A DNA stretch of 64,000 nucleotides, from positions 2,232,001-2,296,000 of the forward strand of contig NC_010407.1 of the NCBI RefSeq assembly GCF_000069225.1, read 5' to 3'. The notes beneath the pieces are model-generated. The model worked only from the letters and a program-made list of their open reading frames with translations. It was not told the origin of the DNA and made no database searches. Made by a program: the position numbers and the translations under genes. The stretch is from Clavibacter sepedonicus. GTDB lineage: Bacteria > Actinomycetota > Actinomycetes > Actinomycetales > Microbacteriaceae. Below are positions 1 through 62,516 of the stretch, in pieces; positions within the stretch are counted from its first letter, which is position 1; each line of letters starts with the position of its first letter.

Positions 1-51
1 CTGCGCGCCGGCGACCCGGCGATCCCGACCGAGGAGGGCGCCCCGGCCTGA
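1..51 (+). CDS. C-terminal end of an upstream gene (partial)
   Basis: The frame open from base 1 ends at TGA (49-51) and gives only 16 residues, polar and Pro/Ala-rich at the end. It is followed by a short gap and then the convergent DUF3039 gene, which fits the tail of a plus-strand gene. There is too little sequence to name a family. Confidence 0.35.
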   Translation: MRAGDPAIPTEEGAPA

Positions 52-23837: not shown

Positions 23838-24752
23838 ATGACCTTCGACGACGACGCCCGCATCGACAGCAGCAAGGTCACGCGACGCCGCGGCGGCCGG
23901 GGACGGACGACCGGCATCGCGGCCGGCGGCGGCGGGCTCCTGGTGGTGGTCGCGGTGATCCTCGTGCAGCAGTTCACGGGCGTCGACCTGTCGCAGATCG
24001 TCGGCGGCGGAGCGGGCGGCACGGGAGCCGGCGGATCCTCGCAGGAGCAGGACGAGGCGATCGAGGGCTGCACGACCGGCGCGGAGGCCAACGCGAGCGT
24101 CGAGTGCCGCATGGCGGGCGCGGCCGACTCGCTCGACACGTACTGGACGACCGCCGCGACGGAGGTCGGCATCGCCGACTACGCGAGCCCCGGCTTCTCG
24201 CTGTTCGACGCCGCGACGAGCACCGGCTGCGGCGAGGCGACGAGCGCCACCGGCCCGTTCTACTGCCCGCCGGACCGACGCCTCTTCGTCGACACGACGT
24301 TCTTCGACGAGCTGCGCACGCGCTTCGGCGCCTCGGGCGGTCCGCTCGCGCAGATGTACGTGGTGGGCCACGAGTGGGGCCACCACATCCAGCAGCTGTC
24401 GGGCGCGTTCGACCGCGCCGACCGCAGCGGCACGGGGCCGGACTCCGACTCCGTGCGGCTCGAGGTGCAGGCCGACTGCGACGCCGGCGCCTGGGTCGGC
24501 GCCGCATCGGAGGTGCGCGACGACACCGGCCGCGCCTTCCTCGAGCCGGTCACCCCGGCCGAGGTGGCCGACGCGCTCGACGCCGCGGCCGCCGTCGGCG
24601 ACGACCGCATCCAGGCGCAGGCGGGCGGCGGGGTGGACCCGGACACCTGGACCCACGGATCCGCGGAGCAGCGCCAGCGGTGGTTCGAGGCCGGCCGCGC
24701 GGGCGGGCCCACGTCGTGCGACACGTTCGCGGTGCCCGGCAGCGCGCTCTAG
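23838..24752 (+). CDS. neutral zinc metallopeptidase family protein (YpfJ-like)
   Basis: A 304-residue protein with a short cytosolic N-terminus, one membrane helix (about residues 30-52) and an extracellular domain. The zinc site HEWGHHIQ is at about residues 178-185, with LEVQADCDAGAW giving the third ligand. Conserved GPFYCPPDRRLFVDT and VDPDTWTHGSAEQRQRWFEAG match the YpfJ/PF04228 family. The stop TAG lies in a CTAG that is duplicated around IS copy 1; the protein is intact. Confidence 0.88.
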   Translation: MTFDDDARIDSSKVTRRRGGRGRTTGIAAGGGGLLVVVAVILVQQFTGVDLSQIVGGGAGGTGAGGSSQEQDEAIEGCTTGAEANASVECRMAGAADSLDTYWTTAATEVGIADYASPGFSLFDAATSTGCGEATSATGPFYCPPDRRLFVDTTFFDELRTRFGASGGPLAQMYVVGHEWGHHIQQLSGAFDRADRSGTGPDSDSVRLEVQADCDAGAWVGAASEVRDDTGRAFLEPVTPAEVADALDAAAAVGDDRIQAQAGGGVDPDTWTHGSAEQRQRWFEAGRAGGPTSCDTFAVPGSAL

Positions 24753-24762
24753 TTGTACTGGG

Positions 24763-25725
24763 TCATGACGTTGGTGACACTCGGGCCGCGGGCGTGAGCC
24801 CGTGGCTTGAGTGGATTCGTTCAGTGTTGTAGTGCTCGATGAAGGGGTCAAGCGCGTCGGCCCGGTGTTGGTTGCTGGTGAAGGGTTGCCGGTAGGCCCA
24901 CTCGGTCGCGAGGGTCCGGTTGAAGCGCTCGACCTTGCCGTTCTGCCAGGGGCAGTGCGGGCGGATGAACTTCTGCCGCGCGCCCAGGTCCTGGACGGCG
25001 TTCTTGAACACGGTCGAGTGCCGGTAGGCGAACGCGTTGTCCGTGATGACCCGCTCGATCCGGGTGATCCCATGCCCGGCGAAGTACGCCGCTGCGCGGG
25101 TCAGGAACCCGGCCGCGGTCGCGCCTTTCTCATCGGGATGGATCTCCGCGTAGGCGAGACGGGTGTGGTCATCGACCGCGGCATGGACGTAATCGAACCC
25201 GATCCCGCGGCCGCGGACCTGCTCGCTGCGCCCGTGGACCCGCCAGCCGCCTCCGTCCGGGATCCTCCCGAGCTTCTTCACGTCCACGTGGATCAGATCA
25301 CCCGGATGCTCGTGCTCATACCGGTGCGCCGTTGACCGGGATGCCCGGATCACGGCCCCGGTGACGGGGTCCAACCATGCCAACGGCGGCGCCCCGTGCC
25401 GGCGCAGGATGCGGGAGATCGTACGGGATGGAACACCTGTCACCGGCGCCAGCCGCGCAGGACCCGCCCGCAACTGGGCCCGCGCTTCCAGCACGGCCCG
25501 TTCCCGCTCCGGGCTCGTTCGCCTCGGTACTGACCGGGGCCGCGATGACCGATCCGTCAGCCCTCGCAGCCCCTCGGCACGGAACCGGTTCACCCATCGA
25601 TGCGCGCACTGCCGCGACACCCCCAGCTCCCGCGCGACGTGCGCGACCGGCCGACGATCCTCCACCACCCGCCGCACGAGGAGAACCCTCCCGTGAACCG
25701 TCAGACGAGCATTACCGTGGGACAT
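24763..25725 (-). CDS. IS481-family transposase
   Basis: A 320-residue DDE transposase. An N-terminal helix-turn-helix (VAHVARELGVSRQCAHRWVN, residues ~27-46) and second helical domain bind the ends. The catalytic residues are Asp148 (HVDVKKLG), Asp229 (ITDNAF) and Glu266 (GKVERFNR), 36 residues apart as expected. The stop codon lies inside the left inverted repeat. Relative to the other copies this one has His218 and Val239 (Arg and Ala in both others). The start has AGGAGG at ideal spacing, buried in a hairpin. Confidence 0.95.
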   Translation of the reverse strand: MSHGNARLTVHGRVLLVRRVVEDRRPVAHVARELGVSRQCAHRWVNRFRAEGLRGLTDRSSRPRSVPRRTSPERERAVLEARAQLRAGPARLAPVTGVPSRTISRILRRHGAPPLAWLDPVTGAVIRASRSTAHRYEHEHPGDLIHVDVKKLGRIPDGGGWRVHGRSEQVRGRGIGFDYVHAAVDDHTRLAYAEIHPDEKGATAAGFLTRAAAYFAGHGITRIERVITDNAFAYRHSTVFKNAVQDLGARQKFIRPHCPWQNGKVERFNRTLATEWAYRQPFTSNQHRADALDPFIEHYNTERIHSSHGLTPAARVSPTS

Positions 25726-25726
25726 C

Positions 25727-25779
25727 GAGGCCTCCTGGCGATGGTTGAACTGAACAGCTCCATCAAGCCAGGAGGCCTC
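25727..25779 (-). promoter_or_regulatory. hairpin covering the transposase ribosome binding site (copy 1)
   Basis: GAGGCCTCCTGGC (25727-25739) and its exact complement (25767-25779) form a 13-bp stem, extended by GATGG/CCATC around a 15-base loop. On the minus strand the inner arm contains the Shine-Dalgarno AGGAGG just before the transposase ATG. A transcript entering from the upstream gene would contain both arms and hide the ribosome site. Confidence 0.7.
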
Positions 25780-25822
25780 TTCACACGCCCCGAAGTGTCA
25801 CCAACGTCATGGCCGAGTACAC

Positions 25823-26314
25823 CTAGCTGCCGGACGTGGAGGTGGGCGCTGGCGTCGTGGCGGGCGCGCCGCCGGACGTCGAGCCCTCCGGGGAACCGGG
25901 CTTCGTGGCGGGTGCCGCGGGACCGGCGGGCGGGGTCGGCGCCGTGCCGTCCGCGTTCGTGGGCGGCGTCGGCGGCGTGGGCGGCGTCGCCGGCGTCCCG
26001 TCCGCGTTCGTCGGCGGGGCCGGCGGCGTGGATCCGTCCGGCAGGGTCACGGGCGCGGGCGGCGTCGTGCCGTCGGGCAGCGCGGGCGGGGCGGGGCAGG
26101 TCGCGGTCGTGCCGCTCCCGGATCCGGCCTGGCCGCTGGTGTCGCCGCCGTTCCCGTCGGCGTACGCCGCCGAGGAGAACAGCGCGACGAGGCCGAGCGA
26201 CGCGCCCGCGATGCCGACGGCGATGCCCGCGCGACGCTTCCGCGGGGCGGGCGTCGGGGTACCGGGCGTCCGCGCGCCCGGCCCCTTCTCGAAGACGGTA
26301 ATGGTGTCGTCCAT
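25823..26314 (-). CDS. exported proline-rich protein
   Basis: A protein of 163 residues from ATG 26314, chosen because GGAAGGACCACC precedes it. Residues ~25-52 (KRRAGIAVGIAGASLGLVAL, then AAYADG) form a signal peptide or anchor. The mature part is almost entirely Pro/Thr/Ala/Gly with repeated LPDGTTPPAP, LPDGSTPPAP and NADGTPATPP units, a wall-spanning or surface linker composition. The TAG stop lies in the CTAG target of IS copy 1. It is divergent from an OmpR-type regulator and could be its target. No family assigned. Confidence 0.7.
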   Translation of the reverse strand: MDDTITVFEKGPGARTPGTPTPAPRKRRAGIAVGIAGASLGLVALFSSAAYADGNGGDTSGQAGSGSGTTATCPAPPALPDGTTPPAPVTLPDGSTPPAPPTNADGTPATPPTPPTPPTNADGTAPTPPAGPAAPATKPGSPEGSTSGGAPATTPAPTSTSGS

Positions 26315-26460
26315 GGTGGTCCTTCCGTGTCCGCCGCGGCGCGGGTGCGCCGGCGGTCGTGGATCCAGGCTCGGCAGCGGATCTGAAGTCCTCCTTAAGT
26401 TCCGCGGCCCCAGCTGACATGGGCCCGGGATCGCCCATCCGCGGCTCCTACAGTCGGGGC

Positions 26461-27129
26461 ATGCTCCCTCCCGCACGCGTCCTCGTGGTCGAGGACGACC
26501 AGGCCATCCGCGCCGCCGTCGTCTCCACCCTCACCGCCGAGCGCTTCGTCGTCCGCGGCCTCGCGTCCGGCGTCGAGCTCGAGGAGGAGGTCAAGGGCTT
26601 CCTGCCCGACCTCGTGGTGCTCGACTGGATGCTCCCCGGGCCGAGCGGCATCCAGCTGGCCGAGCGGATCCGCCGCTGGAGCGACGCGGGCGTCATCATG
26701 CTCACCGCGCGCGACGCCGTCGAGGACCGCCTGCGCGGCTTCGGCCATGGCGTCGACGACTACATCGTGAAGCCGTTCGCGCTCGCCGAGCTGGTGGCGC
26801 GGGTCGGCGCGGTGCTGCGGCGGCGCGGGCGGCTCGCGTCCGTGGTGGAGATCGGCGACCTGCTCGTGGATCCTGACGCAGGGCTCGCCCGGCGCGGCGG
26901 CGAGCCGCTCGAGCTGACCTCGATCGAGTTCCAGCTGCTCGCCTACCTCGCCGCCCACCGCGGCCGCACGCTCTCGAAGACGCAGCTGCTCACGCAGGTG
27001 TGGGGCTACGACCACGCCGACCCGAACCTCGTCGAGGTCCACATCAGCGCGCTGCGCAAGAAGATGGAGGCGCACGGTCCGCGGCTCCTCCACACCGTCC
27101 GCGGGCTCGGGTACCGGGTGGAGGCGTGA
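26461..27129 (+). CDS. OmpR-family response regulator
   Basis: A 222-residue regulator. Receiver domain with VLVVEDDQ, phospho-acceptor Asp55 (LVVLDWMLPG), IMLTARD and YIVKPF; then a winged-helix DNA-binding domain (LELTSIEFQLLAYLAAH, RTLSKTQLLTQVWGY, HISALRKKME, VRGLGYRV). Its TGA overlaps the GTG of the sensor kinase gene, a standard two-component pair. The signal is unknown. Confidence 0.93.
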   Translation: MLPPARVLVVEDDQAIRAAVVSTLTAERFVVRGLASGVELEEEVKGFLPDLVVLDWMLPGPSGIQLAERIRRWSDAGVIMLTARDAVEDRLRGFGHGVDDYIVKPFALAELVARVGAVLRRRGRLASVVEIGDLLVDPDAGLARRGGEPLELTSIEFQLLAYLAAHRGRTLSKTQLLTQVWGYDHADPNLVEVHISALRKKMEAHGPRLLHTVRGLGYRVEA

Positions 27130-51180: not shown

Positions 51181-51209
51181 GCCGCGGGCGCCGCCCTAGC
51201 TGTACTGGG

Positions 51210-52172
51210 TCATGACGTTGGTGACACTCGGGCCGCGGGCGTGAGCCCGTGGCTTGAGTGGATTCGTTCAGTGTTGTAGTGCTCGATGAAGGGGTCAAGC
51301 GCGTCGGCCCGGTGTTGGTTGCCGGTGAAGGGTTGCCGGTAGGCCCACTCGGTCGCGAGGGTCCGGTTGAAGCGCTCGACCTTGCCGTTCTGCCAGGGGC
51401 AGTGCGGGCGGATGAACTTCTGCCGCGCGCCCAGGTCCTGGACGGCGTTCTTGAACGCGGTCGAGTGCCGGTAGGCGAACGCGTTGTCCGTGATGACCCG
51501 CTCGATCCGGGTGATCCCGCGCCCGGCGAAGTACGCCGCTGCGCGGGTCAGGAACCCGGCCGCGGTCGCGCCTTTCTCATCGGGATGGATCTCCGCGTAG
51601 GCGAGACGGGTGTGGTCATCGACCGCGGCATGGACGTAATCGAACCCGATCCCGCGGCCGCGGACCTGCTCGCTGCGCCCGTGGACCCGCCAGCCGCCTC
51701 CGTCCGGGATCCTCCCGAGCTTCTTCACGTCCACGTGGATCAGATCACCCGGATGCTCGTGCTCATACCGGTGCGCCGTTGACCGGGATGCCCGGATCAC
51801 GGCCCCGGTGACGGGGTCCAACCATGCCAACGGCGGCGCCCCGTGCCGGCGCAGGATGCGGGAGATCGTACGGGATGGAACACCTGTCACCGGCGCCAGC
51901 CGCGCAGGACCCGCCCGCAACTGGGCCCGCGCTTCCAGCACGGCCCGTTCCCGCTCCGGGCTCGTTCGCCTCGGTACTGACCGGGGCCGCGATGACCGAT
52001 CCGTCAGCCCTCGCAGCCCCTCGGCACGGAACCGGTTCACCCATCGATGCGCGCACTGCCGCGACACCCCCAGCTCCCGCGCGACGTGCGCGACCGGCCG
52101 ACGATCCTCCACCACCCGCCGCACGAGGAGAACCCTCCCGTGAACCGTCAGACGAGCATTACCGTGGGACAT
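51210..52172 (-). CDS. IS481-family transposase
   Basis: A 320-residue intact transposase, with the DDE residues Asp148, Asp229 and Glu266 present. It differs from copy 1 at positions 218 (Arg), 239 (Ala) and 284 (Gly instead of Ser) and from copy 3 only at 284. Start, ribosome site and hairpin are the same as in copy 1. Confidence 0.95.
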   Translation of the reverse strand: MSHGNARLTVHGRVLLVRRVVEDRRPVAHVARELGVSRQCAHRWVNRFRAEGLRGLTDRSSRPRSVPRRTSPERERAVLEARAQLRAGPARLAPVTGVPSRTISRILRRHGAPPLAWLDPVTGAVIRASRSTAHRYEHEHPGDLIHVDVKKLGRIPDGGGWRVHGRSEQVRGRGIGFDYVHAAVDDHTRLAYAEIHPDEKGATAAGFLTRAAAYFAGRGITRIERVITDNAFAYRHSTAFKNAVQDLGARQKFIRPHCPWQNGKVERFNRTLATEWAYRQPFTGNQHRADALDPFIEHYNTERIHSSHGLTPAARVSPTS

Positions 52173-52173
52173 C

Positions 52174-52226
52174 GAGGCCTCCTGGCGATGGTTGAACTGA
52201 ACAGCTCCATCAAGCCAGGAGGCCTC
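52174..52226 (-). promoter_or_regulatory. hairpin covering the transposase ribosome binding site (copy 2)
   Basis: The same 13-bp arms as in copy 1 lie at 52174-52186 and 52214-52226. The helicase gene upstream ends 44 bases before the outer arm, so helicase read-through transcripts would fold this hairpin and hide the AGGAGG. Confidence 0.7.
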
Positions 52227-52269
52227 TTCACACGCCCCGAAGTGTCACCAACGTCATGGCCGAGTACAG

Positions 52270-54555
52270 CTAGACGCGCGCGAGGTCCGCGATGACGCGG
52301 TCCCCGGCGGCGGCCATGACGGTCGTCGCCTTGATCTCGGCGCGACCCAGGAGGTCGTCCATGCGGCGACGGCGGGCCTTCGTGATCAGCGTCACGACGG
52401 TGCCCTGCTTGCCCGCGCGGCCCGTGCGGCCGGCGCGGTGGAGGTAGCTCTTGTACTCGTCGGGCGCGTCGGCCTGGATGACCAGCCCGATGTCGTCGAC
52501 ATGGATGCCGCGGGCGGCCACGTCGGTGGCGACGAGCACGCGGACCTTGCCGCTCGTGAGGAGCTGCAGGTTGCGCGTGCGACGCGCCTGGTTGAGGTCG
52601 CCGTGCAGCGACGTGGCCGGGATGCCGGCGTCCTCGAGCTGGTCGGCGAGCTGCTCGGCGAACGCGCGGGTGCGGGCGAAGATCAGCGTCTTGCCCTCGC
52701 CGGAGCTCAGCTGCTCGATGATCGCGGCCTTGTCGCGCTGCTCGATGAGGAGCACGCGGTGGTCGATGGTCGACGATGCCTGGTCCTCGCCCGCGACCTC
52801 GTGGACGCTGGGCGACGGCAGGAACTCGTTGACGAGCGTCGCGACGCCCTTGTCGAGCGTGGCGGAGAAGAGCAGGCGCTGGCCGTCCTTCTTCACCTGG
52901 CGGAGGATCCGCTGCACGGGCTCGAGGAACCCGAGGTCGCACATGTGGTCGGCCTCGTCGAGCACGGTGACGACGATCTCCGAGAGGTCGAGGCGGCCCT
53001 GGTCGATGAGGTCCTCGAGGCGGCCGGGGGTCGCGATGAGGATGTCGACGCCGCGCTGGAGAGCCCCGACCTGCTTGAACTGCGGCACGCCGCCGAAGAT
53101 CGTGGTGGTGAACAGGCCGACGGAGCGGGCGATGGGCTGCACCGTGCGGTCGATCTGCATGGCGAGCTCGCGCGTCGGGGCGAGGATCAGCGCGCGGGGC
53201 TTGCGGCCCATCTTGCGGTTCTTCGCGCCGTCGTTCTCGAGCAGGCGCTCCACGAGGGGCGCGCCGAACGCGATGGTCTTGCCGGATCCGGTGCGGCCGC
53301 GGCCGAGCACGTCGCGACCCGCGAGCACGTCCGGGATGGTGGCGGCCTGGATCGGGAACGGGCTGGATGCGCCCAGCTCCTCGAGCACGCGCACGATGTT
53401 CTGGCCGAGGCCGAGGGCCGCGAAGGTCACGCCGTCGACGTCCTTGGCCGTGGTGGCCTGGGCCTCGAGGCGCTCGAGCACGACGTCCTCGGCGGGAGCG
53501 TGGCGCGGGGCGCCCTCCTTGCTCGGGTAGAAGTCGCTGTCGCGCTTGGGGCGGGCGTCGTCGTAGGACGGGCGCTCGCTGCGCTGGGGGCGGTCGCCGT
53601 AGGAGGGGCGCTCGGAGCGCTGCGGGCGGTCGCCGTACGAGGGACGCTCCGTGCGTGCCGGGCGGTCGTTGTAGGACGGACGCTCCGTGCGAGCCGGGCG
53701 GTCGTTGTAGGACGGACGCTCCGTGCGAGCCGGGCGGTCGTTGTAGGACGGACGCTCCGTTCGCTCGGCACGGTCACCGTACGACGGACGCTCCGTGCGG
53801 GCCGGGCGGGAGTCGTTGTACGACGGGCGCTCGGCGCGAGCCGGACGGTCGCTGTACGCGGGACGCTCGGTGCGGGTGTTCCGGTCGTTGTACGACGGGC
53901 GCTCGGCGCGGTCGTTGTACGCGGGGCGCTCGGAGCGCTGGGCGCGGTCGCCGTACGAGGGACGCTCGGCGCGGTCGTTGTGGGAGGGACGCTCCGAACG
54001 AGCCGGACGGTCGTCGCACGACGGACGCTCCGACCGCTGCGGCCGGTCGTTCCCGTAGGACGGACGGTCGTTGCGCGGGGCGCGGTCGTTGTACGACGGA
54101 CGCTCGGAGCGCTCGTCGCGCGCCGGACGCGCGTTCCCGTAGGACGGACGCTCGGAACGCTGGCCGCGCTCGGCACCGTAGGAGGGACGCTCGCTGCGCT
54201 GGCCGCGGTCGTTGCCGCCGCCGTAGGAGGGGCGCTCGCCGCGCTGCGGGCGGGCGTCGCCGCGCTCGGGGCGCTGGCCGGCGCGGTTGGGACGGTCGCC
54301 GTACGCGGGACGCTCGCCGCGGCCGGCGGGGCGCTCGGCGCGGGGCTCCCAGTTGGGGCGGTCGCCGCCGCGTGCGGGGCGGGCTGCGCCGCCGCGCTGG
54401 GGGCGGTCGTCCTGGCCGGAGCGCTGGGCGCGCTCGTCGGCGTTCCAGCGCTGCTTCTTGGGCGCGGGATCGGAGTTGTAGCCGCGGTGGTTCGGGCTGC
54501 GGGATCCCGCGGGGGCGCGCTTGGCGCCGCGCGGGGAGTCGTTGTTGTAGGGCAT
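52270..54555 (-). CDS. DEAD-box RNA helicase with repetitive N-terminus
   Basis: A 761-residue protein. The helicase core starts near residue 375: FAALGLGQNIVRVLEELGAS with the Q motif (PFPIQAATIPD), GRTGSGKT (motif I, ~420), PTRELA, TPGRLED, LDEADHM (the family's DEAD box), SATLD and HRAGRTGRAGKQG (motif VI). Residues ~107-334 are unstructured Arg/Ser/Tyr repeats (ERPSYNDRPART type), preceded by a Gly/Arg-rich start. Most DEAD-box proteins carry the RGG-like tail at the C-terminus. It likely remodels mRNA or ribosome precursors at low temperature. The TAG stop lies in the CTAG of IS copy 2. Confidence 0.92.
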   Translation of the reverse strand: MPYNNDSPRGAKRAPAGSRSPNHRGYNSDPAPKKQRWNADERAQRSGQDDRPQRGGAARPARGGDRPNWEPRAERPAGRGERPAYGDRPNRAGQRPERGDARPQRGERPSYGGGNDRGQRSERPSYGAERGQRSERPSYGNARPARDERSERPSYNDRAPRNDRPSYGNDRPQRSERPSCDDRPARSERPSHNDRAERPSYGDRAQRSERPAYNDRAERPSYNDRNTRTERPAYSDRPARAERPSYNDSRPARTERPSYGDRAERTERPSYNDRPARTERPSYNDRPARTERPSYNDRPARTERPSYGDRPQRSERPSYGDRPQRSERPSYDDARPKRDSDFYPSKEGAPRHAPAEDVVLERLEAQATTAKDVDGVTFAALGLGQNIVRVLEELGASSPFPIQAATIPDVLAGRDVLGRGRTGSGKTIAFGAPLVERLLENDGAKNRKMGRKPRALILAPTRELAMQIDRTVQPIARSVGLFTTTIFGGVPQFKQVGALQRGVDILIATPGRLEDLIDQGRLDLSEIVVTVLDEADHMCDLGFLEPVQRILRQVKKDGQRLLFSATLDKGVATLVNEFLPSPSVHEVAGEDQASSTIDHRVLLIEQRDKAAIIEQLSSGEGKTLIFARTRAFAEQLADQLEDAGIPATSLHGDLNQARRTRNLQLLTSGKVRVLVATDVAARGIHVDDIGLVIQADAPDEYKSYLHRAGRTGRAGKQGTVVTLITKARRRRMDDLLGRAEIKATTVMAAAGDRVIADLARV
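53554..54237 (-). repeat. in-frame repeat region coding the helicase tail
   Basis: About 19 imperfect 8-13-residue units centred on RPSY or RPAY followed by GDR, NDR or similar. Four consecutive SYNDRPARTERP-type starts at residues 270, 282, 294 and 306 follow a strict 12-residue (36-bp) period with almost identical DNA, so this part has expanded recently. Confidence 0.85.
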
Positions 54556-60299: not shown

Positions 60300-60331
60300 G
60301 TCGATCTCGCGTCGGCGCTAGGTGTACTGAG

Positions 60332-61294
60332 TCATGACGTTGGTGACACTCGGGCCGCGGGCGTGAGCCCGTGGCTTGAGTGGATTCGTTCAGTGTTGTA
60401 GTGCTCGATGAAGGGGTCAAGCGCGTCGGCCCGGTGTTGGTTGCTGGTGAAGGGTTGCCGGTAGGCCCACTCGGTCGCGAGGGTCCGGTTGAAGCGCTCG
60501 ACCTTGCCGTTCTGCCAGGGGCAGTGCGGGCGGATGAACTTCTGCCGCGCGCCCAGGTCCTGGACGGCGTTCTTGAACGCGGTCGAGTGCCGGTAGGCGA
60601 ACGCGTTGTCCGTGATGACCCGCTCGATCCGGGTGATCCCGCGCCCGGCGAAGTACGCCGCTGCGCGGGTCAGGAACCCGGCCGCGGTCGCGCCTTTCTC
60701 ATCGGGATGGATCTCCGCGTAGGCGAGACGGGTGTGGTCATCGACCGCGGCATGGACGTAATCGAACCCGATCCCGCGGCCGCGGACCTGCTCGCTGCGC
60801 CCGTGGACCCGCCAGCCGCCTCCGTCCGGGATCCTCCCGAGCTTCTTCACGTCCACGTGGATCAGATCACCCGGATGCTCGTGCTCATACCGGTGCGCCG
60901 TTGACCGGGATGCCCGGATCACGGCCCCGGTGACGGGGTCCAACCATGCCAACGGCGGCGCCCCGTGCCGGCGCAGGATGCGGGAGATCGTACGGGATGG
61001 AACACCTGTCACCGGCGCCAGCCGCGCAGGACCCGCCCGCAACTGGGCCCGCGCTTCCAGCACGGCCCGTTCCCGCTCCGGGCTCGTTCGCCTCGGTACT
61101 GACCGGGGCCGCGATGACCGATCCGTCAGCCCTCGCAGCCCCTCGGCACGGAACCGGTTCACCCATCGATGCGCGCACTGCCGCGACACCCCCAGCTCCC
61201 GCGCGACGTGCGCGACCGGCCGACGATCCTCCACCACCCGCCGCACGAGGAGAACCCTCCCGTGAACCGTCAGACGAGCATTACCGTGGGACAT
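60332..61294 (-). CDS. IS481-family transposase
   Basis: A 320-residue intact transposase with Asp148, Asp229 and Glu266. It carries Arg218, Ala239 and Ser284, the combination between copies 1 and 2. Stop codon in the left inverted repeat and hairpin at the start as in the others. Confidence 0.95.
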   Translation of the reverse strand: MSHGNARLTVHGRVLLVRRVVEDRRPVAHVARELGVSRQCAHRWVNRFRAEGLRGLTDRSSRPRSVPRRTSPERERAVLEARAQLRAGPARLAPVTGVPSRTISRILRRHGAPPLAWLDPVTGAVIRASRSTAHRYEHEHPGDLIHVDVKKLGRIPDGGGWRVHGRSEQVRGRGIGFDYVHAAVDDHTRLAYAEIHPDEKGATAAGFLTRAAAYFAGRGITRIERVITDNAFAYRHSTAFKNAVQDLGARQKFIRPHCPWQNGKVERFNRTLATEWAYRQPFTSNQHRADALDPFIEHYNTERIHSSHGLTPAARVSPTS

Positions 61295-61295
61295 C

Positions 61296-61348
61296 GAGGC
61301 CTCCTGGCGATGGTTGAACTGAACAGCTCCATCAAGCCAGGAGGCCTC
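61296..61348 (-). promoter_or_regulatory. hairpin covering the transposase ribosome binding site (copy 3)
   Basis: The same 13-bp arms lie at 61296-61308 and 61336-61348. The LysR-type gene ends 44 bases before the outer arm, so its read-through transcript would carry both arms. Confidence 0.7.
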
Positions 61349-61391
61349 TTCACACGCCCCGAAGTGTCACCAACGTCACGGCCGAGTACAC

Positions 61392-62414
61392 CTAGCGCCC
61401 GCGCCGCTGGCCGCGCGGCGGGGGAGTGCGGCCGCCGCCCTTCGGTGCCGGCTTCGACCCGCCCTTGCCGCCCGCGCCGCCCGGCTTGCCCGCGGCCTTG
61501 CGCGCCGTCTTCTGCGCGGCGGTCGGCTTCCGGCGGTCGCGCTCGTCCTCGTCGCGGGAGGAGCGCGAGCTCGCGGCCGTGCGCCCGCGGACGATGCCCA
61601 CGAGCTCCTCGATGTCGGGGGAAACGTCGCCCTCGCGCCAGGCCACGGCGATCCGCGTCTCCGGCAGGTCGTGCACGGGCACGGCCACGACGTCCTTGCG
61701 CGCGTGCAGGCGGCCGAGCGCGTGCGGCACGACCACGAAGCCGACGCCTGCGGCGACCAGCTCGACGGCCGCGGCGACGTCCTCGGGCATGGGGACGGGA
61801 TCCGCGCCCGCGGTGCGCCCGGGCCAGCCCGGCACCTGGTCGGCCGGCTGCAGGAGCAGGTCGTCCGCGAGGTCGGTGATCGCGATCGCGTCGGCCGTGG
61901 CGTGCGCGTGCTCCTTGGGCAGGATCGCGACCTGCACCTCGCCGTAGAGCGGGACGATCGTGAGGCCCCGGCCGTCGACGGGGAGGCGGAGGAACGCGAC
62001 GTCCGCGGATTGGTCGACCAGCGCGGGCGCGGCGTCCGGCTCGGCGAGCGGCACGACCCGCAGCGGCACGTCGGCGACGCGCTCGTCCCAGGCGCGGGTC
62101 CACTTGGCGACGGTGACGCCGGGCACGATCGCGACGACGAGCCCCCGCGGCGGCGCGGCGGCCTCCTCGGCCAGGCGCGCGTCCTCGGCGGCGATCGCGG
62201 CGCGGGCCTCCGCGAGCCGTGCCTCGCCCGCGGGGCTGAGGCGCGTGGGCCCGTCGTCGCGCACGAACAGCTCGACGCCCCAGAGCGCCTCGAGGTCGAG
62301 GATCGAGCGGCTCACGGCGATGCGCGAGACGTTGAGGGCCTTCGCGGCGCGGGCGAAGTGCAGCTCGTCGGCCACGGCGGCGAAGCGCCGGAGGGCGGTC
62401 GGGTCGGCGTCCAC
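61392..62414 (-). CDS. LysR-family transcriptional regulator with basic C-terminal tail
   Basis: A 340-residue regulator from GTG 62414 (GAGGGG 6 bases upstream). The helix-turn-helix is at residues ~4-60 (ALRRFAAVADELHFARAAKA, NVSRIAVSRSILDLEALWGV). A type 2 periplasmic-binding-like effector domain follows (VDGRGLTIVPLYGEVQVAIL, VVPHALGRLHARKDVV). The last ~60 residues are Lys/Arg/Gly/Pro-rich (KPTAAQKTARKAAGKPGG and similar) and resemble a non-specific nucleic-acid-binding tail, unusual for the family. Divergent from the DUF5997 gene, an association I know from other actinobacteria. TAG stop in the CTAG of IS copy 3. Confidence 0.88.
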   Translation of the reverse strand: MDADPTALRRFAAVADELHFARAAKALNVSRIAVSRSILDLEALWGVELFVRDDGPTRLSPAGEARLAEARAAIAAEDARLAEEAAAPPRGLVVAIVPGVTVAKWTRAWDERVADVPLRVVPLAEPDAAPALVDQSADVAFLRLPVDGRGLTIVPLYGEVQVAILPKEHAHATADAIAITDLADDLLLQPADQVPGWPGRTAGADPVPMPEDVAAAVELVAAGVGFVVVPHALGRLHARKDVVAVPVHDLPETRIAVAWREGDVSPDIEELVGIVRGRTAASSRSSRDEDERDRRKPTAAQKTARKAAGKPGGAGGKGGSKPAPKGGGRTPPPRGQRRGR

Positions 62415-62516
62415 GGGAGTCCCCTCGATCGCCCGCACGAAGGTGGCGCGGTGAGCGGCGGCGGGTCGATCCAGGCTAGTGCAGGGCGGTCGGGGCCCCG
62501 ACGGTACCCTGGGCAC

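What the first reader, a model, noticed from the sequence alone, without database searches (positions are those of the whole stretch)
24749..25826. IS element inserts into CTAG sites that are themselves stop codons
All three copies (24753-25822, 51200-52269, 60322-61391) are bordered on both sides by CTAG. In each case the CTAG on the right contains the TAG stop of a minus-strand gene (proline-rich protein, DEAD-box helicase, LysR regulator). For copy 1 the left CTAG also contains the TAG of the metallopeptidase gene. Rebuilding that site shows two convergent genes whose stops overlapped in one CTAG palindrome. The 4-bp duplication restores the stop on each side, so no protein is altered. In a very GC-rich genome CTAG is rare inside codons and concentrated at TAG stops and in gaps, so this target choice gives harmless insertion almost automatically.
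Basis: partly seen in the sequence, partly recalled or inferred. Interest (0 to 1): 0.75.

Follow-up and report, generated by a model that had tools for sequence, protein, structure and literature searches.

The report
Known jumping element targeting CTAG sites
This is IS1121, an already described IS481-family element of a potato pathogen that inserts at the rare sequence CTAG, often exactly at a gene's stop codon so the gene stays whole, but the specific site rebuilt from copy 1 is not real because recombination between copies brought its two flanks together.

Summary
The borders are as described: all three window copies have CTAG on both sides, and four of six borders are a flanking gene's TAG stop. 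The element is IS1121 (IS481 family), 99.9% identical to a named Clavibacter sepedonicus copy. Of 71 complete copies, 63 have CTAG on both sides and 8 on one. CTAG is rare (105 in 400 kb, 290-964 expected), and 75 of 90 background CTAGs lie at stops or between genes, so the passive logic broadly holds. IS borders coincide with stops more often than other CTAG half-sites (54 of 133 against 29 of 172), partly because of a longer GC-rich target. Two points fail. The duplication is 6 bp (NCTAGN), not 4. The double stop rebuilt at copy 1 is not a real site: its hexamers differ, and the flanks of all three window copies are non-adjacent in 7 of 7 congeners tested, so they are IS-IS recombination junctions. 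True double stops occur at other copies. CTAG targeting with preserved stops was in print for a related Rhodococcus transposon; IS rearrangement in C. sepedonicus is also known. Interest is low; the counts, and hexamer mismatch as an imperfect rearrangement footprint, remain.

The parts
24754..25821 (-). IS1121 copy 1, 1068 bp between the inverted-repeat tips
   Evidence: 99.9% identical to a record annotated IS1121
24763..25725 (-). IS481-family transposase, 320 aa
   Evidence: NCBIfam NF033577, E 9.8e-94, 314 bits against a cut-off of 224; LZ_Tnp_IS481 and rve domains
24748..24753 (.). Left border hexamer TCTAGT; contains the TAG stop of the metallopeptidase gene
25822..25827 (.). Right border hexamer CCTAGC; not equal to the left one; contains the TAG stop of the minus-strand gene
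23838..24752 (+). Zn_peptidase gene ending in the left CTAG of copy 1
   Evidence: the corresponding place reads CTAG in 3 of 4 congeners, TGTAG in the fourth
25823..26476 (-). Gene of a protein without a Pfam match, ending in the right CTAG of copy 1 (start uncertain)
   Evidence: CTAG at the corresponding place in 3 of 3 congeners
51201..52268 (-). IS1121 copy 2; border hexamers CCTAGC / GCTAGA
   Evidence: flanks non-contiguous in 7 of 7 congeners searched
52270..54555 (-). DEAD-box helicase gene ending in the right CTAG of copy 2
   Evidence: CTAG at the corresponding place in 3 of 3 congeners
60323..61390 (-). IS1121 copy 3; border hexamers GCTAGG / CCTAGC
   Evidence: flanks non-contiguous in 7 of 7 congeners searched
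61392..62498 (-). LysR-type regulator gene ending in the right CTAG of copy 3 (start not determined; the stretch searched is given)
   Evidence: CTAG at the corresponding place in 3 of 3 congeners

Best explanation
The element is IS1121, an IS481-family insertion sequence whose transposase inserts at CTAG and duplicates the hexamer NCTAGN (shown). It prefers a GC-rich site with G or C three bases out and a tendency towards GCNCTAGNGC (shown by comparison with unused CTAGs). In this 73% GC genome CTAG is strongly depleted inside codons, but TAG stops preceded by C supply it at gene ends (shown). Insertion therefore often falls on a stop codon, and the duplication leaves each flanking gene its TAG (shown at 54 of 133 borders). 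Selection against insertion in promoters and genes probably adds to this (inferred). Later, homologous recombination between the nearly identical copies reshuffled the chromosome at IS copies, so many copies, including all three in the window, carry left and right flanks from different original insertions (shown for the window copies by synteny in 7 of 7 congeners; inferred for about two thirds of copies from hexamer statistics).
For: Identity. Copy number 71 complete (68 on the large contig, 2 and 1 on the small ones), the same as the review gives for C. sepedonicus ATCC 33113 (passages). CTAG on both borders: 63 of 71, 39 of 39 in G016, 63 of 69 elements with recognised ends, out of 80 loci, in other genomes. 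6-bp duplication: hexamers equal in 31 of 39 and 46 of 63; exact 6-base overlap of flank matches at L049 in 3 of 3 congeners. Stops: 54 of 133 borders against 29 of 172 half-sites, OR 3.4, p 5e-6. Longer motif: base -3 is G or C in 126 of 133 IS half-sites against 120 of 172 background. Recombination: non-contiguous flanks for the window copies in 7 of 7 congeners. One ancestral insertion is split between two copies: the left border of L048 and the right border of L046 copy 1 both read TCTAGC and abut with a 6-base overlap in 3 of 3 congeners.
Against: One hexamer-unequal copy (L084) has contiguous flanks in 3 of 3 congeners, and one hexamer-equal copy (L048) does not, so the hexamer is an imperfect marker (6 of 7 unequal or CTG-bordered against 1 of 4 equal copies non-contiguous, Fisher p 0.088; these 11 are those tested, not a random sample). 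Eight of 71 copies lack CTAG on one side. Stop enrichment in G016 against its own small background is not significant (32 of 78 against 14 of 46, p 0.26). Gene calls are from a home-made caller.
Confidence: 0.9

Rival explanations
1. One reading: copy 1 is a single insertion into one CTAG where two convergent genes' stops overlapped, with a 4-bp duplication restoring both.
For: Both borders of copy 1 are gene stops. Such single-target double stops exist at other copies: L045 in G000, and 5 of 31 hexamer-equal copies in G016.
Against: The border hexamers of copy 1 differ. Its left and right flanks map far apart in 7 of 7 congeners searched, for example G016 2,266,859 and 2,816,374.
Confidence: 0.03
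2. Active targeting: the transposase or a host factor directs insertion to gene 3' ends or terminating transcription, beyond the DNA motif.
For: A stop excess remains after matching context: OR 1.95 (p 0.043) to 2.67 (p 0.009) in the five context classes tried. In other genomes 35 of 126 borders are stops against 7 of 282 control half-sites. A weak bias puts the stop at the IS right border in G000 (33 of 66 R, 21 of 67 L, p 0.035).
Against: With joined sites and a larger, noisier background the excess vanished after context matching (OR 1.33, p 0.66). The R/L bias is absent in G016 (14 of 39 R, 18 of 39 L). Selection against other sites gives the same pattern. The caller was trained on one genome, so the cross-genome comparison is rough.
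Confidence: 0.12
3. Unequal hexamers arise without rearrangement: donor bases retained at the ends, gene conversion between copies, or consensus errors in the assembly.
For: Unequal L084 is contiguous in 3 of 3 congeners. Five of 71 copies have a one-base-short CTG/CAG on one side.
Against: The other tested unequal copies (window 1-3, L038, both of L046) are at non-contiguous junctions. The split TCTAGC pair L048/L046 restores an equal hexamer.
Confidence: 0.15

Closest known systems
IS1121 of Clavibacter sepedonicus (IS481 family)
   Same: 99.9% identity over the element to a named record; 71 copies as in the review (68 + 2 + 1; PMC9190974, passages); rearrangement at IS copies and only five IS inserted in CDSs already reported there, citing Bentley et al. 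2008 (not held).
   Different: Nothing structural; the words CTAG, stop codon and target site do not occur in that review's main text.
TnRErm46 / ISRe46 of Rhodococcus equi (PMC6794481, passages seen)
   Different: A 6.9-kb transposon with cargo; its transposase takes its own stop from the target CTAG, whereas the window transposase ends at an internal TGA (24763-24765).
ISLxc2 / ISLxx4 of Leifsonia xyli (PMC2516522, passages seen)
   Same: IS481 family, NCTAGN duplication, actinobacterial host.
   Different: The transposase stop lies in the host insertion site; stops of target genes are not discussed in the passages seen, and gene/intergenic insertion is called independent of IS family.
IS1122 (records at about 88% identity are so annotated; the sister genome G016 carries an element at 88%, so it is probably this one)
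   Same: 39 of 39 distinct copies in CTAG.
   Different: Hexamers mostly equal (31 of 39 against 25 of 63, p 9e-5), i.e. fewer signs of recombination.
IS481 of Bordetella pertussis
   Same: Consensus target NCTAGN (PMC3053399, passage seen).
   Different: That paper reports a copy in CCTAAC, so CTAG is not absolute.

Membership tests
IS481 family | IS481-type transposase | tested here: met
   NF033577 314 bits against a cut-off of 224; LZ_Tnp_IS481, rve and rve_3
IS481 family | Terminal inverted repeats starting TGT | tested here: met
   143 end matches in the genome; tips TGTACT...AGTACA
IS481 family | Insertion at CTAG with 6-bp duplication NCTAGN (as described for several members) | tested here: met
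   CTAG on both sides in 63 of 71; hexamer equal in 31 of 39 in G016; 6-base overlap in congeners. Not met at the three window copies themselves, whose hexamers are unequal and whose flanks are recombinant
IS481 family | DDE catalytic triad mapped residue by residue | not tested
   Only domain matches were obtained
IS481 family | Copy-out/paste-in transposition | not testable with these tools
   Needs biochemistry; a copy-paste mechanism is stated for the family in PMC6794481 (passage)
IS1121 | Near-identity to the named element | tested here: met
   99.9% over query 2-1069 to NZ_CP088267.1, annotated IS1121 family
   TCTAGT/CCTAGC; non-contiguous in 7 of 7

The most novel reading that the evidence does not exclude
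IS481-family elements of GC-rich actinobacteria are selective for gene ends beyond the CTAG motif: the transposase, or a host process acting at terminating genes, favours stop-codon CTAGs, giving many copies and frequent recombination at gene boundaries, so that chromosomes are reshuffled in whole-gene blocks without breaking reading frames.
Probability: 0.12. Interest if true: 0.5.

Novelty: already known. Interest (0 to 1): 0.22.

Why it matters
It shows with counts how a short rare target word can keep a high-copy mobile element largely out of reading frames in a GC-rich genome. It also warns that empty sites rebuilt from one copy are unsafe in genomes where IS copies recombine. Unequal NCTAGN hexamers offer a cheap, imperfect marker of rearrangement junctions.

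Tried and rejected
Rejected: a pure 4-bp duplication with carried end bases (outer and inner bases match far above chance: x=z 35 of 63, y=w 39 of 63, shuffle means about 22), and an undisturbed 6-bp duplication at every copy (25 of 63 equal). Considered: donor-flap retention and gene conversion to explain unequal hexamers; synteny made recombination the main cause, with L084 left over. Considered: that the stop excess is wholly explained by motif context. says yes, says only partly, so it is left open. In one search the larger background (220 CTAGs, including flank loci) holds many 'intergenic' sites that may be uncalled mobile or plasmid genes, so the headline uses the random 400 kb only. 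Rows dropped: one G000 copy with a left end only (L070), and two G016 copies on contig C3 (L216, L217) that repeat L213 and L214. Literature searches: IS481+CTAG, NCTAGN, stop-codon combinations, IS1121+Clavibacter, and IS1121/IS1122 with CTAG or direct repeat. In their listings I saw no quantified stop-codon share for IS1121, but the last search listed 20 of 130 papers and most subscription papers are not held, so no claim of absence in print is made.

Full report
WHAT IS THERE. The finding concerns three copies of one element at 24754-25821, 51201-52268 and 60323-61390 (1068 bp each). The transposase (24763-25725, minus strand) is a clear IS481-family protein (NF033577, 314 bits against a cut-off of 224). 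A plasmid record of Clavibacter sepedonicus carries the element at 99.9% identity, annotated IS1121; five records at about 88% are annotated IS1122. The genome (three contigs, 3.40 Mb) yielded 143 end matches and 71 copies with both ends, 68 on the large contig and 2 and 1 on the smaller ones, plus one copy with a left end only (L070).

BORDERS. CTAG stands on both borders in 63 of 71 copies and on one border in the other 8. Five of the 8 have a one-base-short CTG or CAG instead (L046 copy 1, L055, L060, L072, L080); L056, L081 and L087 have neither. In the sister genome G016, 81 end matches correspond to 41 copies; two on contig C3 repeat others, and the 39 distinct ones have CTAG on both borders in 39 of 39. 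Of 174 relatives found in other genomes the best 80 were kept; ends were recognised in 69: 63 have CTAG on both sides, 4 on one, 2 on none.

THE DUPLICATION IS NCTAGN. In G016 the full hexamers are equal in 31 of 39 (about 6 by chance); in other genomes in 46 of 63. At hexamer-equal copy L049 the left and right flank matches in three congeners overlap by exactly 6 bases in 3 of 3. At L039 they do in 1 of 3; in the other two the right match starts 12-15 bases in.

UNEQUAL HEXAMERS MARK RECOMBINATION. In the window's genome only 25 of 63 copies have equal hexamers (chance 7.8; G016 against G000 p 9e-5). From the chance rate, about 31% of these G000 copies and 76% of G016 copies would be undisturbed insertions (an inference). 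All three window copies are unequal: TCTAGT/CCTAGC, CCTAGC/GCTAGA and GCTAGG/CCTAGC. In 7 of 7 congeners searched (of 17 handled), the left and right flanks of each of the three are not neighbours. For copy 1 they are at 2,266,859 and 2,816,374 in G016 (the latter match starting about 230 bases into the flank), and at 298,800 and about 2,927,043 in G012. Further tests in three congeners: unequal L038 and both copies of L046 (copy 1 has CTG on one side) non-contiguous; equal L049, L039 and L085 contiguous (L085 where both flanks were found, 2 of 3). Against the rule, equal L048 is non-contiguous and unequal L084 contiguous. Counting the window copies this is 6 of 7 unequal and 1 of 4 equal non-contiguous (Fisher p 0.088). 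The L048 exception is instructive: its left flank and the right flank of L046 copy 1 abut in 3 of 3 congeners with a 6-base overlap, and both borders read TCTAGC, so one original insertion has been split between two present copies. One search, on the parts of G016 fetched, shows further G000 and G016 copies sharing one flank only.

THE REBUILT SITE. Since the flanks come from different places, that site did not exist as such. What relatives show instead: at the left site the Zn-peptidase gene ends in CTAG in 3 of 4 congeners (the fourth has TGTAG); at the right site CTAG is present in 3 of 3. The right sites of copies 2 and 3 also have CTAG in 3 of 3 each, the left site of copy 3 in 3 of 3, and the left site of copy 2 in 0 of 4. 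So five of six half-sites have a CTAG at the corresponding place in congeners, which suggests that it was there before the insertion. Genuine single-target double stops exist elsewhere: 1 of 25 hexamer-equal copies in G000 (L045), 5 of 31 in G016, and 7 of 46 in other genomes (L144, L153, L156, L158, L165, L173, L185; rows).

STOPS, MEASURED. With a gene caller trained on 400 kb of the genome (354 genes, 86.5% coding, TAG 65 of 341 stops), 90 background CTAGs fell 28 at stops, 47 between genes, 15 in genes; 35 of 65 TAG stops read CTAG. The joined-site count for 63 copies was 45 stops, 16 intergenic, 2 coding, but joining is unsafe here, so each border was scored alone: 54 of 133 IS borders are the stop of the gene pointing at them, against 29 of 172 background half-sites (OR 3.4, p 5e-6; 9 of 142 borders dropped for lacking CTAG or being short). 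In G016 it is 32 of 78, not significant against its own 46 half-sites (14 stops, p 0.26). In other genomes it is 35 of 126 against 7 of 282 control half-sites in the same loci, with a caller trained on one genome.

WHY MORE STOPS THAN CTAG ALONE PREDICTS. IS sites favour G or C at three bases out (126 of 133 half-sites against 120 of 172) and GC-rich surroundings; intergenic sites show G at -3 (0.66 against 0.23) and C at -2 (0.62 against 0.29). At a stop, -3 is a third codon position and is nearly always G or C here (28 of 29 background stop half-sites), so the longer motif itself favours stops. Matching context removed the excess in one analysis (OR 1.33, p 0.66) and reduced it to OR 1.95-2.67 (p 0.043-0.001) in the other. 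The rest may be selection against promoter insertions or true targeting; these data do not separate them.

PRIOR ART. The mBio 2019 paper on R. [quoted passage not shown] The Leifsonia paper (passages) reports NCTAGN and transposase stops lying in the target, and calls gene or intergenic insertion independent of IS family. The central idea is therefore already known for this kind of element.

VERDICT. Ordinary element, correct border observation, one wrong inference (the rebuilt site) and one wrong detail (4 bp). The counts and the rearrangement footprint are useful additions.

Noticed in passing
L046 copy 1, L055, L060 (left borders) and L072, L080 (right borders): Five of 71 copies have CTG or CAG instead of CTAG on one border, always lacking the third base counted outward from the element; cause unknown (assembly error, end-processing or mutation).
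   Followed up: partly
L084 (G000:C2:2477904-2478971): Unequal hexamers (TCTAGC/GCTAGC) although the flanks are contiguous in 3 of 3 congeners; about 47 bases of the right flank do not align.
   Followed up: partly
L060 and L236: G000 and G016 carry the element at what looks like the same site but in opposite orientation relative to the flanks; several other sites share one flank only, so some insertions may predate the species split.
   Followed up: no
L196 (Microbacteriaceae MAG): A relative with equal hexamers ATTAGA/ATTAGA, i.e. a duplication that is not CTAG.
   Followed up: no
window 24754-25821 and its other copies: Border stops are weakly more frequent at the right end, upstream of the transposase, in G000 (33 of 66 R, 21 of 67 L, p 0.035) but not in G016 (14 of 39 R, 18 of 39 L).
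   Followed up: partly
L213/L216 and L214/L217 (G016 contig C3): The end of this contig repeats its start (98.6% and 95% of 31-mers shared), which looks like an untrimmed circular plasmid assembly.
   Followed up: partly
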